64,000 nt of DNA. Origin: Kiloniellaceae bacterium. GTDB taxonomy: Bacteria; Pseudomonadota; Alphaproteobacteria; Kiloniellales; Kiloniellaceae. Each line of letters starts with the position of its first letter. Position 1 is the stretch's first letter. The stretch spans positions 27,372 through 91,371 of the forward strand of contig WHTV01000003.1 of assembly GCA_009377535.1 (NCBI GenBank), given 5' to 3'. Shown here piece after piece: positions 10,518 to 60,127 of the stretch. Under the pieces are notes generated by a model that did not search any database, was not told the origin of the DNA, and worked only from the letters and a program-made list of their open reading frames with translations. The translations under genes were made by a program, and so were the position numbers.

Positions 10518-11056
10518 GCGACACAAAGGAAAGCGCCGGCAAGCGCTCCATCGTCTCCTCGGCCCACCTGGTCTCCGAGCGCGCCGCCGAGACCAGCGCC
10601 TTCGAGTACGGCCTCTACATCGCCTCCAACGCCTTCAATCGCTGGATCACCAGGTGCATGGCGGCGGCCGGCTATCCGGACCTCGGCGCCCTCGACGTCA
10701 TGGTGCTGCACACGGTGAATCACCGGGCGCGCGACAAGAAGCTGGCCGACATCTGCTTCGTCCTCAACATCGAGGACAGCCACACGGTGAACTACGCCCT
10801 GAAGAAGCTGACGCGCGCCGGCCTCGTCGCCGGCGACAAGCGCGGCAAGGAGATCTTCTATGCGACCACCAAGGAAGGCCAGGCCGCCTGCGTGAAGTAC
10901 CGCGAGGTGCGCGAGGACTGCCTGATCACCGCCTTCAGCGCCTTCGGCGGCGACAAGGCCGGCGAGCTGAACGAGCAGATCGGCGAGGCCGCCGACCTCC
11001 TGCGCGCCCTCTCCGGCCTCTACGACCAGGCAGCGCGCTCGGCGTCGAGCCTTTAG
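10514..11056 (+). CDS. MarR-like winged-helix transcriptional regulator
   Basis: LDVMVLHTVNHRARDKKLADICFVLNIEDSHTVNYALKKLTRAGLVAGDKRGKEIFYATTKEG winged-helix pattern; ATGA overlap with oxoprolinase stop. Confidence 0.75.
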
Positions 11057-11059
11057 AGA

Positions 11060-12232
11060 TTATTCCGCAATGTTATCCTGGGTGCGCAGGCTGCGCACTA
11101 CGTGCCCTGGCTTTGGAACTCTCTCTCTGCCTACGAGTCCTACGATCTCGATAGCGCCGGCTTTTCGAAGTTCGGCGAGCCATCCGTTGAGATCTTGAAC
11201 ACTTACCAATGGGATCTCTAGTACCTTACCCAAGACTGACTCGTACGCTATCTCATGATTTTCGCGAATGATGGAGAATAGCAAGCTGCGGGCCAGGCTT
11301 TGCTTCAGTGACCGTTGCTGTTCGAACGGCAGGTTTGGTTCTGATACATCGGCCCTTGCAAACAGGTCTTCTTGGCCTGTTTGCGCTACCTTTCTTAAGC
11401 GTCTCGTTGCTCCGAACACGCTCTCTTGCTCATCGGCGGCCCTTTGCTCCACTTTGCGGAACTCGAGAATCCCTTTCCAATGGCGCGTGGCATAGATCAG
11501 GTAGAAGTATGAGCGCTCTGAAAGCGGCTTCTTGATGCGTGTGCATGTGACATGAGCGAAGCCGCCGACTTGGCGAAGCCGATCCATGTACACTGCGACT
11601 ATCGCGTCTTCGCGACTCAAGCCTTTGTCAATGTGGTCAGTATACAGATCGTACCAGTTGGGGTGGCCGAATAGTGAGTTGAATCCCTCAGCCGTCTTTG
11701 GATTCGGATGCTCAACAAATCTGTTGATGTGGTCGAACATGAAGTTGATCAGCACCTCACCCCGCAACTTCAGCAATGGGTCGAGGTTATGCATGTCAAA
11801 CCCAGTCCAGCCAGTCGGATCAATGAACACGAACGAAAACTGTCGGCCAATTTCGCCTGCTATTGCTGGAATAAGGTCACGAAACTCGCCTTGAAGTGCA
11901 GCGATATCCAGATCGGGAATGCGGGAAACTACCGACTGCAGTTCAGCAAAGCTTTCTGGATTTTTCTCGATGAAGATGCATCGCGGACTTGCCGCTTTCC
12001 CGGCTTGCCTTAGAGCAGCCTTAACCTCGCGGAGCTTATCAATCGCGATAATGAAGGACGTATCCTTGAACTGCTCATCTCTGGACTTCCATGGTCCAGA
12101 AAACCCGTCGACATAAACGAACTTCGGCCAGTTCGAAAGAATGATATAAGCGACACGCTCTAGATATCGCTCTAGAAAGAAGTGCTTAACGTAGGTTTGC
12201 TCATTCCCACGGTAAGCTTGTGGGGATTTCAT
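11060..12232 (-). CDS. tcmP: Three-Cys-motif partner protein TcmP
   Basis: MKSPQAYRGNEQTYVKHFFLERYLERVAYIILSNWPKFVYVDGFSGPW...FSFVFIDPTGWTGFDM; ATG at 12232 overlaps the upstream TGA (ATGA). Confidence 0.8.
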   Translation of the reverse strand: MKSPQAYRGNEQTYVKHFFLERYLERVAYIILSNWPKFVYVDGFSGPWKSRDEQFKDTSFIIAIDKLREVKAALRQAGKAASPRCIFIEKNPESFAELQSVVSRIPDLDIAALQGEFRDLIPAIAGEIGRQFSFVFIDPTGWTGFDMHNLDPLLKLRGEVLINFMFDHINRFVEHPNPKTAEGFNSLFGHPNWYDLYTDHIDKGLSREDAIVAVYMDRLRQVGGFAHVTCTRIKKPLSERSYFYLIYATRHWKGILEFRKVEQRAADEQESVFGATRRLRKVAQTGQEDLFARADVSEPNLPFEQQRSLKQSLARSLLFSIIRENHEIAYESVLGKVLEIPLVSVQDLNGWLAELRKAGAIEIVGLVGRERVPKPGHVVRSLRTQDNIAE

Positions 12233-12966
12233 GCGGCGAAAGTGCGCGCTGATGGGAACTCGTCCCATTTCCGCCCATCGAGTTCCCGTCCTCCCGCCTT
12301 TGGGCGGAAGCCGCCCCATTGCTTGAAGAAGAAGGGGACCTTTGCCTCGACGCATTGATCGCGAACCTCGCGCGCCCAATTCACCTGCATAGGCCGGGCC
12401 CGTGGTCCGCTTTCGCCGCCGACAATGACCCAGTGAATCCCTGTAAGGTCGATCTGGCCGACTGCACCGATAAGGGGTTCGATGGATAAAAAGCGCACTC
12501 CGCACTGTGTGTCGCGGAGATGGCGCACCCTTGAGAGCTTCGTCCCATCTTCTACCGACACGCCAAGCCAGATATGGTCGGGTGCGGCACCGTCACGATA
12601 GCGCGCATTGATGTAATTCCGCATCCGCGAGCTACGCTTTGTGAGCAACTGGAAGACGTGCCAGTCCGCCTTTTCCATCGTCTCGAAGACGGCGTCGACA
12701 AACTCGGCGGGGACTTTTTTGTGGAAGAGGTCACTCATCGAGTTGACGAAAATCATCCGTGGCCGTCGCCAAGTCAGTGGCTGACTCAGCCGGGCAGGCC
12801 GAAGCGTGAGATCAAAGCCGTTCTCGAAAGCGTTGCCTGCCACTCCTCTGAAGCGCTCCGAGAATCGCTCCGCATAACAGTTGTCGCAGCCGGCGCTGAT
12901 CTTCGTGCAGCCCGTCACCGGATTCCAGGTCGCGTTTGTCCACTCGATGGCTGATTTATCGGCCAC
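12229..12966 (-). CDS. DUF5131 / phage Gp37-Gp68 family three-Cys-motif protein
   Basis: ADKSAIEWTNATWNPVTGCTKISAGCDNCYAERF (CX6CX2C), FVNSMSDLFHKKVP, HIWLGVSVED, RFLSIEPLIG, WVIVGGESGPRARPM, PFFFKQWGG; GTG start proposed at 12966. Confidence 0.85.
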   Translation of the reverse strand: MADKSAIEWTNATWNPVTGCTKISAGCDNCYAERFSERFRGVAGNAFENGFDLTLRPARLSQPLTWRRPRMIFVNSMSDLFHKKVPAEFVDAVFETMEKADWHVFQLLTKRSSRMRNYINARYRDGAAPDHIWLGVSVEDGTKLSRVRHLRDTQCGVRFLSIEPLIGAVGQIDLTGIHWVIVGGESGPRARPMQVNWAREVRDQCVEAKVPFFFKQWGGFRPKAGGRELDGRKWDEFPSARTFAA

Positions 12967-13128
12967 GGAAGCCTCCCACGTTTCTGCCGAGCGAGACCGC
13001 TCGATAACAGCGCGCACTTTCCGGTGCCCCGGTCGCTGGGGGACAACTGACCCGGATTCTGCCTGCCACTAGAGGCGGAATCAACTAATGGATGTGCACC
13101 GCGGCGGAAATTCGCGATTCTTGCTGGC

Positions 13129-14361
13129 CTACACCGCTCCCGCGGTGCCCGGCTTATCGCTAGCCTTCGCCAGCGGGCGGCGGGCGACCAGCGCCGCGAG
13201 CCCCAGGAAGACCACGGCGAAGAGCCCCGGCATGGAATCAGGGCCGAAGGCCTGCAGCATGGCGCCGCCGGCCAGCGGGCCGAAGGTGCCGCCGATGCCG
13301 TAGGCCAGCGCGAAGCAGGCGCTGCCAGCGAGCAGCAGGCTGCCGCGGAAGTGCTCGCCGAGCACCGTGAGTGCGCCGGTATAGAGCGCGAAGGAGACGC
13401 CGCCCAGCAGCACCAGCAGCGGCCACATCACCGCCGGCAGGGCGAGCGACCAGGGCAGCAGGGCGCAGGCGACGGCCGCCACCAGGCTGCAGCCGGCGAT
13501 GACGCCGGGCCGCGAGAAGCGGTCGAGCAGCCAGCCGACCGGGTACTGCGCCAGCACCATGCCGACCAGCATGGCCGAGAGCGCGGTGGCGCCGATCTCG
13601 GCGGTGAAGCCGGAGCGCAGCATGTAGACCGGGATCAGGGTCATCACCGCCGCGTCGAAGAAGGCGAAGACCATCACCACGCCGGCCAGCAGCGCGGCCA
13701 CGGCGAGGAAGCGGCGCAGGTTGGCAAGGCGCATGCCGGCCAGCTCCGCCGCACTGCGGCGCCTGAGCGGCAGGATCATCACGATGGAAGCGGCAATGAT
13801 GGCGGCGCAGACGAAGAAGGGCAGCAGCCCGGCGCCGCCGAGCATCACCAGCAGCAGCGGTCCGAGGGCAAAGCCGGCCGCCATCACCGTGGCGTAGACG
13901 CCGATGACGCGGCCGCGGATGCGCTCGGCGGTCACCGAGTTCAGCCAGGCCTCGGAGACGACGAAGATCACGTTGAGACAGAAGCCGAGCAGGATGCGCA
14001 AGGCCAGCCAGCTGACCTCCGGATCGGTGAAGGGCATGGCGAGCAGGCTGGCTGCCGTGCCGACAAGGCCCAGCACCACCACGGCGAAGGCGCCGAAGCG
14101 GTGCAGCAGGCGCGGCAGCACGAAGACGGCGAGCACCACGCCGACGCAGGTGGTGGCGCCGTTGAGGCCGATCATGAAATCGCTGAAGCCGGCCTCCACC
14201 ATCATGATGGAGAGCAGCGGATAGGTGAGGCCGAGCGCCAGGCCGAAGACGCCGATGCAGGTAATCAGCGCGGTGACGGCGGCCCAGTCGGTCGGGCGTT
14301 CCTGCGGCAGGCCTGCCAGGGGAGGTTGCAGCGGGGCTTCCATGGCGCCGGAAGATGCCAC
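13129..14361 (-). CDS. MFS transporter
   Basis: 12-TM-like hydrophobic pattern, LPRLLHRFGAFAVVVLGLVGTAASL, ERIRGRVIGVYATVMAAGFALGPLLL. Confidence 0.88.
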   Translation of the reverse strand: MASSGAMEAPLQPPLAGLPQERPTDWAAVTALITCIGVFGLALGLTYPLLSIMMVEAGFSDFMIGLNGATTCVGVVLAVFVLPRLLHRFGAFAVVVLGLVGTAASLLAMPFTDPEVSWLALRILLGFCLNVIFVVSEAWLNSVTAERIRGRVIGVYATVMAAGFALGPLLLVMLGGAGLLPFFVCAAIIAASIVMILPLRRRSAAELAGMRLANLRRFLAVAALLAGVVMVFAFFDAAVMTLIPVYMLRSGFTAEIGATALSAMLVGMVLAQYPVGWLLDRFSRPGVIAGCSLVAAVACALLPWSLALPAVMWPLLVLLGGVSFALYTGALTVLGEHFRGSLLLAGSACFALAYGIGGTFGPLAGGAMLQAFGPDSMPGLFAVVFLGLAALVARRPLAKASDKPGTAGAV

Positions 14362-30887: not shown

Positions 30888-31019
30888 GGCTCTTCCAGAC
30901 CCAACTCTTGCTATGCTCCCTGCCGAGGATATTGCTCCCCCTGGCGACCTCAAAGTGGGGCGCTTCTGTTGCCAGGTGCGCCCCGGACCCCGCCTATACT
31001 TGTGAGAGTCTAGGACTTA

Positions 31020-31298
31020 GATTTGGCTTACCTGACCGCTATTAAGCGGCGAGGCGAGCCTCACTGTAGTTGTCGTTCGCAACTATAGTTTCGGCCCGAT
31101 AACGGCGGTACCATGCCGGGCACCGAACCCATCTTTACCACGCACGTCGATCCTATTTCGCCCCCATAAGGTCCCTCCGCAAAGCCAGATTCCGACGATG
31201 TGGAGAGGGATTGGTGGAGGCGCCGGGTACTGCCCCCGGGTCCGTCACGCTTATTTCACAGGCCCGTTTAGCACCATAGCCGGCAAGCCGGCACCCCC
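31020..31298 (-). ncRNA. ssrA: Two-piece (circularly permuted) tmRNA: acceptor piece ~31298-31212, intervening segment, coding piece ~31165-31020
   Basis: Minus strand: acceptor 3' end ...GGCAGTACCCGGCGCCTCCACCA (ends 31212); coding-piece 5' end GGGGGCGAAATAGGATCGACGTGC (31165); tag ORF GCG AAC GAC AAC TAC AGT GAG GCT CGC CTC GCC GCT TAA = ANDNYSEARLAA* at 31080-31042. Piece ends approximate. Confidence 0.93.
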
Positions 31299-31405
31299 AA
31301 TATAGGCACTTTGCGGCCTCGATAAAAGGTCTACGCGCGACCGCGGCCGGCGGCCTCCAGGGCTCGAAAGGGCGATTTGGAGGGGCGTCGCCGGGGCCAT
31401 CTGGG

Positions 31406-59728: not shown

Positions 59729-60127
59729 CGGGCACTCCCGTTGGCAAGAACGTCCAAGATGTGCCGGTACTGTCCCGGGAGCCCGCCGCTATGGAGACGG
59801 CGGCCCGATGCGGTACCGGCCGTCGCGCGAACACGCCGCACAGCGGCATGGTCGTCGCGACCCTGAAAATGCTGCCTTCGCTTGGAACGGGAGACCCGGT
59901 CCGCACGGCTGGCAAGGATGTAGCTGCCTCTTCAGTAACCCCGGCCTTTGGAAAGCCGGCAGAGACCAAAAAAGCCCTCTACGTCGTTGCTTTAAGCCGC
60001 TCGGCCCTCCGAAGCTTTGGAGAGCCCCGCCAACCCGACTTTCCAGCCGTTGGGCGTCGTGGGAGCGACCACGGGCACGTGCGAATTTGGGCAAGGGCTA
60101 AATATGCCCGGGCGGGTTTGGATGCAA
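59729..60127 (-). promoter_or_regulatory. Promoter and long 5' leader of ornithine decarboxylase (candidate speF-type leader RNA)
   Basis: Minus strand TTGCAT (60127-60122), 17 bp, TATTTA (60104-60099); ~360-nt leader containing hairpins such as GGGGCTCTCCAAAGCTTCGGAGGGCC and GCCGGCTTTCCAAAGGCCGGGG. Confidence 0.5.

What the first reader, a model, noticed from the sequence alone, without database searches (positions are those of the whole stretch)
11060..12966. Two-gene DUF5131 (three-Cys-motif) + TcmP cassette: candidate uncharacterised system
Seen: DUF5131-type ORF with VTGCTKISAGCDNCYAERF (CX6CX2C) whose TGA overlaps the ATG of the next ORF (ATGA, 12229-12232), so the two are translationally coupled. 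The second ORF carries VYVDGFSGPW and FVFIDPTGWTG, a Rossmann/methyltransferase-like layout. Known: DUF5131 belongs to the phage Gp37/Gp68 family, and the partner is named TcmP only for co-occurrence with three-Cys-motif proteins; I know of no established biochemical function. Inference: the Cys cluster may bind Fe-S/SAM (radical-SAM-like), with TcmP acting as partner enzyme, in a small mobile module that could do nucleic-acid modification or phage defence.
Basis: partly seen in the sequence, partly recalled or inferred. Interest (0 to 1): 0.82.

Follow-up and report, generated by a model that had tools for sequence, protein, structure and literature searches.

The report
Radical-SAM-like enzyme paired with methyltransferase
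Two neighbouring bacterial genes encode an iron-sulphur, radical-SAM-like enzyme and a methyltransferase-like partner that travel together across bacteria, plasmids and phages; the pair is already catalogued as an untested phage-defence candidate, and the new clue is that the methyltransferase half is swapped out while the other half stays put.

Summary
A DUF5131 gene (12229-12966, minus strand; PF07505, 334 bits) is followed by a TcmP gene (11060-12232; TIGR04474, 156 bits, cut-off 53), overlapping by ATGA. The pair is not new: NCBIfam names TcmP, and PADLOC lists the combination as untested candidates PDC-M30/M41.

What I add. DUF5131's nearest solved folds are spore photoproduct lyase; its invariant CX6CX2C (122/122) aligns with the CX3CX2C of SplB-type radical-SAM proteins with three residues inserted. 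TcmP has a class I SAM-methyltransferase fold, homologous by profile to the rRNA m6A methyltransferase RlmJ, plus a winged-helix-like tail. Linkage is near-obligate (26 of 28 TcmP loci), but gene order varies (71 DUF5131-first, 33 TcmP-first, 15 convergent, 1 divergent): adjacency, not the overlap, is conserved.

Among DUF5131 pairs at least 75% identical, TcmP identity is bimodal (18 at 10-30%, none at 30-50%, 23 at 50% or above). At one acidobacterial site TcmP is replaced between conserved flanks.

Best reading: a mobile nucleic-acid-modifying module with a constant radical-SAM enzyme and an exchangeable methyltransferase partner, probably for conflict with phages or other mobile elements. 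No experiment supports the function.

The parts
12229..12966 (-). DUF5131 (PF07505, 'phage Gp37/Gp68 family'), 245 aa; radical-SAM/spore-photoproduct-lyase-like predicted fold
12877..12909 (-). CX6CX2C motif (C20, C27, C30), proposed [4Fe-4S] ligands
   Evidence: invariant in 122/122 homologues; aligned with CX3CX2C of SplB-like radical SAM
11060..12232 (-). TcmP (TIGR04474), 390 aa; class I SAM-methyltransferase fold with C-terminal extension
12086..12115 (-). TcmP motif I (VDGFSGPW), SAM-binding loop; third Gly replaced by Trp, as in 25 of 78 aligned TcmPs
11807..11830 (-). TcmP motif IV (VFIDPTGW); D138 invariant in 78/78
11090..11335 (-). TcmP C-terminal region resembling a winged helix; other TcmPs here match PF22560 GMT-wHTH
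   Evidence: (weak, below cut-off)
12229..12232 (-). ATGA stop/start overlap of the two genes
11059..13168 (.). accessory segment without DNA similarity to congeners: similarity stops at 11056-11058 (MarR stop) and resumes at about 13169 at the earliest

Best explanation
The cassette encodes a two-component, nucleic-acid-acting enzyme pair. DUF5131 is a compact radical-SAM-type enzyme (partial beta/alpha barrel, [4Fe-4S] cluster on CX6CX2C) of the SplB/spore-photoproduct-lyase branch. It would cleave SAM to a 5'-deoxyadenosyl radical and act on a base or sugar of DNA or RNA. TcmP is an RlmJ-related SAM-binding methyltransferase domain, often with a winged-helix tail, that selects and methylates or otherwise marks the target, so that the constant DUF5131 can work with interchangeable TcmPs. 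The module moves as a small cassette and most likely serves in conflict with phages or other mobile elements, either by modifying or damaging foreign nucleic acid or by marking self. Shown here: family identities, near-obligate pairing, Cys invariance, fold and profile matches, horizontal movement, TcmP replacement. Inferred: Fe-S/SAM chemistry, nucleic-acid substrate, specificity role of TcmP, conflict role.
For: DUF5131 model pLDDT 95.9; 4 of the 5 best PDB matches are spore photoproduct lyase (probability 0.98-1.00). Profile match to SplB-like radical SAM (hhalign E 3e-5, prob 73) with NPxxGC...GCxxC(Y/F)A in register; unrelated comparisons prob 0.1-0.3. C20/C27/C30 122/122. TIGR04471 'radical SAM mobile pair protein A' matches at 3.6e-23, below its cut-off. 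TcmP model pLDDT 94.2, best PDB hits all SAM methyltransferases; profile match to RlmJ E 6e-7, prob 92. Linkage: all 7 TcmP-bearing genomes in the order, 26/28 TcmP loci in the class sample, 71/80 closest DUF5131 loci. Bimodal TcmP identity among similar DUF5131s; TcmP replaced at one site between conserved flanks; one DUF5131 with two TcmPs on a P. aeruginosa plasmid and S. meliloti pSymA. Variable insertion spot whose other occupants include HEPN_AbiV. Pair beside the immunity repressor of Gordonia phage Jablanski.
Against: No experiment. Foldseek E-values for DUF5131 are only 7e-3 and weaker, TM about 0.5. The Cys spacing is not the canonical CX3CX2C and Pfam Radical_SAM does not match. TcmP lacks the DPP(Y/F) motif of RlmJ/adenine methyltransferases (DPTG/DPFG instead), and this copy has GPW for GxG, so methyl transfer is unproven. 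Immediate neighbours are mostly unrelated housekeeping genes; no PADLOC family recurs in more than 2 of 133, so there is no clear defence-island signal.
Confidence: 0.5

Rival explanations
1. Self-protective hypermodification: the pair (or DUF5131 with another methyltransferase) decorates the DNA of the mobile element or phage that carries it, protecting it from host restriction, rather than attacking invaders.
For: DUF5131 is widespread in phages (161 of 50,697 phage records), usually without TcmP (58 of 80 viral loci), sometimes directly beside a DNA methylase (Gordonia phage Bakery genes 63-64) or ASCH/DUF4326-like genes (those two names are my reading of the sequences, not a family search).
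Against: The rise in DNA methyltransferase density near phage DUF5131 is weak (0.054 per kb within 0.5 kb against 0.019 at 6-8 kb, 3 events each). Most TcmP pairs found are in bacterial chromosomes or contigs between unrelated genes.
Confidence: 0.25
2. DNA or RNA repair: DUF5131 is a photolyase-like repair enzyme recruited to damage by TcmP.
For: Closest solved fold is spore photoproduct lyase, a DNA-repair radical-SAM enzyme.
Against: Patchy accessory distribution (7 of 63 genomes of the order) and replacement of TcmP at a fixed site are unusual for repair. The genome has a separate SplB-like PA0069-family protein.
Confidence: 0.1
3. Selfish or addiction-like cassette: TcmP and DUF5131 form an antagonistic pair (toxic modification and its reversal).
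For: Two small adjacent genes, mobile, in phages, plasmids and variable spots.
Against: DUF5131 often occurs alone (12 of 19 DUF5131-bearing genomes in the order lack TcmP), and one DUF5131 is found with two TcmPs. No toxin-like feature tested.
Confidence: 0.07

Closest known systems
PADLOC candidate systems PDC-M30 and PDC-M41 (TcmP-like A + DUF5131 B)
   Same: Same two-gene composition; DUF5131 matches M41B and M30B at 348 and 343 bits.
   Different: This TcmP matches the M30A/M41A models only partly (best 59 bits), so it is a divergent partner. PDC systems are unvalidated candidates (PMC12813430).
NCBIfam TIGR04474 three-Cys-motif partner TcmP with Pfam PF07505 DUF5131
   Same: Both genes are full family members.
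   Different: Nothing; the pair is a member.
Radical-SAM mobile pair A (TIGR04471)
   Same: Homologous, aligned over residues 15-216.
   Different: 82 bits against a cut-off of 355; that family was not shown here to have a TcmP partner.
Spore photoproduct lyase / SplB-like PA0069 radical-SAM proteins
   Same: Predicted fold and NPxxGC...GCxxC(Y/F)A signature.
   Different: CX6CX2C instead of CX3CX2C, shorter protein, invariant VGGESG and KQWG motifs of its own.
RlmJ (23S rRNA m6A2030 methyltransferase)
   Same: KH, motif I D..AG.G.Y, GSPxIA, motif II acid, IDP in register.
   Different: No DPP(Y/F)E catalytic motif; a variable position then a nearly invariant Gly; extra C-terminal domain.

Membership tests
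TcmP (TIGR04474) | score above curated cut-off (53 bits) | tested here: met
   156 bits
DUF5131 (PF07505) | score above gathering cut-off (28.9 bits) | tested here: met
   334.2 bits
DUF5131 (PF07505) | three-Cys motif conserved | tested here: met
   C20, C27, C30 in 122/122
TIGR04471 rSAM_mob_pairA | score above cut-off (355 bits) | tested here: not met
   82.2 bits
PDC-M30/M41 candidate system | B component (DUF5131) adjacent to A component (TcmP) | tested here: inconclusive
   B strong (348 and 343 bits); A partial (59 and 26 bits), system thresholds not available
PDC-M30/M41 candidate system | protects against phage | not testable with these tools
   no validation found in the open-access library
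Radical SAM superfamily | canonical CX3CX2C cluster motif | tested here: not met
   CX6CX2C; aligns with CX3CX2C with a 3-residue insertion
Radical SAM superfamily | match to Pfam Radical_SAM | tested here: not met
   only PF07505 matched at E up to 0.001
Radical SAM superfamily | partial beta/alpha barrel resembling known members | tested here: met
   AF2 pLDDT 95.9; spore photoproduct lyase top of PDB, prob 0.98-1.00, TM about 0.5
Radical SAM superfamily | [4Fe-4S] cluster and reductive SAM cleavage | not testable with these tools
   needs purified protein
Class I SAM methyltransferase | Rossmann-type MTase fold with motifs I, II and IV acidic residues | tested here: met
   Foldseek top hits all MTases; D42 76/78, E/D89 78/78, D138 78/78
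RlmJ / adenine-N6 methyltransferases | (D/N)PP(Y/F) catalytic motif | tested here: not met
   DPTG here; the family has DP or DQ, then a variable residue and Gly
GMT-wHTH (PF22560) | score above cut-off in the C-terminal domain | tested here: not met
   not hit at E up to 10 for the window TcmP; L004, L006 and pSymA TcmPs pass

The most novel reading that the evidence does not exclude
A combinatorial immune or modification system in which one constant radical-SAM enzyme (DUF5131, non-canonical CX6CX2C) is redirected by exchangeable methyltransferase/winged-helix partners (TcmP), analogous to swapping of specificity subunits in type I restriction, and installs or exploits a radical-made nucleic-acid modification.
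Probability: 0.25. Interest if true: 0.82.

Novelty: new member of a known kind. Interest (0 to 1): 0.5.

Why it matters
If right, it gives a testable chemistry to two widespread families of unknown function (DUF5131 matches in 407 plasmid and 161 phage records here, and in many phyla) and points to a radical-SAM enzyme in bacterial-phage conflict beyond the known prokaryotic viperins (the viperin comparison is from general knowledge). The swap pattern says which half to test for target choice.

Tried and rejected
Defence-island test: Pfam and PADLOC scans of 133 immediate neighbours and a PADLOC scan of 129 farther ORFs gave no recurrent defence family near the pair; left as inconclusive. DNA methyltransferase enrichment around phage DUF5131: weak. 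A single alternative partner at the shared acidobacterial site (L113:7123-7920, Cys-rich, opposite strand) has no relative in the loci held and no Pfam match. Translational coupling as the conserved feature: rejected. Simple fast drift of TcmP: disfavoured by the empty 30-50% identity range and by flank alignments. PDB sequence searches with single proteins and profiles: nothing useful except a weak RlmJ lead. TcmP in viral contigs by tblastn with the window protein: no relative confirmed. Direct repeats bounding the insertion: none convincing. First pSymA stretch fetched held no pair; the second did.

Full report
Observation. DUF5131 runs 12966-12229 (245 aa) and TcmP 12232-11060 (390 aa), overlapping as ATGA. 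Pfam PF07505 matches at 334 bits and NCBIfam TIGR04474 at 156 bits against a cut-off of 53. Each protein occurs once in the genome.

Already catalogued. PADLOC-DB lists the combination as candidates PDC-M30 and PDC-M41, with A components TcmP-like and B components DUF5131. PDC means PADLOC defence candidate and is treated as unvalidated in the literature (PMC12813430). PDC-M30 was predicted in 32 strains of a P. aeruginosa panel, 68.8% of them phage resistant, which is a correlation only (PMC10855318). A TcmP (SMa2243) is listed beside hna in a S. meliloti expression table (PMC12445080). No function was found in the open-access library.

Linkage. In the order, all 7 genomes with TcmP have DUF5131 beside it, while 19 genomes have DUF5131. 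In a class sample, 26 of 28 TcmP loci hold DUF5131; one exception lies near a contig end and the other is below the family cut-off. Of the 80 closest DUF5131 loci in the species-genome collection, 71 hold TcmP, in records named Nitrospina, Acidobacteria, Planctomycetes, Chloroflexia, Synechococcus and others. Among 120 distinct pairs, 71 are DUF5131-first, 33 TcmP-first, 15 convergent and 1 divergent, and nearly all lie within 150 bases of each other. Selection is on proximity, not on the overlap.

What DUF5131 is. The model (pLDDT 95.9) has alternating beta/alpha elements with the Cys loop after the first strands. Four of its five best PDB matches, by Foldseek, are spore photoproduct lyase (probability 0.98-1.00, E 7e-3 to 3e-2, TM about 0.5). 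A profile of 122 DUF5131s aligns with SplB-like PA0069 radical-SAM proteins (E 3e-5, prob 73), so that NPVTGCTKISAGCDNCYA sits on NPYRGCEHGCVYCFA with three extra residues between the first two cysteines. Unrelated profile comparisons gave prob 0.1-0.3. The three cysteines are present in all 122 sequences; C205 is in 119. I read this as a divergent radical-SAM enzyme. The chemistry itself is inference.

What TcmP is. The model (pLDDT 94.2) has a class I methyltransferase fold; all leading PDB matches are SAM methyltransferases. The profile aligns with RlmJ (E 6e-7, prob 92) over KH, motif I, GSPxIA, motif II and IDP. The acidic positions of motifs I, II and IV are conserved (D42 76/78, E/D89 78/78, D138 78/78), but the DPP(Y/F) motif is absent, and this copy has GPW instead of GxG in motif I, as 25 of 78 do. 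Long TcmPs carry a C-terminal winged-helix-like domain (GMT-wHTH in several relatives; only a sub-threshold MCM4_WHD match here); short ones of about 300 aa are too short to hold it.

Partner replacement. Comparing 113 pairs, TcmP and DUF5131 identities correlate only modestly (Mantel r 0.36, 0 of 999 permutations as high). Among DUF5131 pairs at least 75% identical, TcmP identity is bimodal: 18 pairs at 10-30%, none at 30-50%, 23 at 50% or more. The window fits: its DUF5131 is 75% identical to that of L006, whose TcmP is 23% identical, and 74% identical to that of L057, whose TcmP is 51%. At one acidobacterial site, downstream of the same carboxyl-transferase gene, flank and DUF5131 DNA align at 70-87% in seven genomes while the TcmP in between does not align for most pairs; L116, L125 and L129 share one TcmP type, although the DUF5131 of L129 is closer to those of L115 and L118. 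In L113 an unrelated Cys-rich ORF sits there instead. A P. aeruginosa plasmid carries TcmP-DUF5131-TcmP, and S. meliloti pSymA carries DUF5131-TcmP-TcmP. This suggests a constant DUF5131 and an exchangeable TcmP; I did not find it described in the library searched.

Mobility and place. GC falls to 48-60% in the cassette against about 68% around it. The same-genus copy (G056) is 46% identical in DUF5131, far less than a Nitrospina copy at 72%. In the window genome and seven congeners the hydantoinase-MarR genes are conserved and the stretch between MarR and the MFS/racemase block varies (about 1.4 to 7.7 kb); other occupants include a HEPN_AbiV protein and a nucleotidyltransferase with a pentapeptide protein. 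DNA similarity to congeners stops at 11056-11058, the MarR stop codon. No tRNA lies near.

Phages. DUF5131 is found in 161 phage records, mostly of Mycobacterium and Gordonia; in viral contigs, 22 of 80 loci also hold TcmP. Gordonia phage Jablanski has a convergent pair between RelBE/integrase genes and the immunity repressor, a usual place for lysogen-expressed cargo (the last point is general knowledge).

Verdict. I judge it at confidence 0.5 to be a nucleic-acid-acting conflict module. Nothing here demonstrates defence.

Noticed in passing
12238-12251 and 13008-13021: Perfect 14-nt inverted repeat GAAAGTGCGCGCTG flanking the DUF5131 gene; about 2% of first-order simulations give one as long, and there are only two exact copies in the genome. 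May be chance.
   Followed up: partly
L290:9149-10750: A HEPN_AbiV protein occupies the same MarR-MFS interval in a congener, so the interval is a cargo spot.
   Followed up: partly
L113:7123-7920: A 265-aa Cys-rich ORF on the opposite strand replaces TcmP beside DUF5131 at the shared acidobacterial site; no Pfam match.
   Followed up: partly
L294:6968-10506 and L299:39221-42266: One DUF5131 with two different TcmPs, on a P. aeruginosa conjugative plasmid and on S. meliloti pSymA.
   Followed up: partly
30954-31331: Permuted (two-piece) alphaproteobacterial tmRNA on the minus strand.
   Followed up: no
59805-60092: speF leader preceded by an ar45 sRNA match, both on the minus strand.
   Followed up: no
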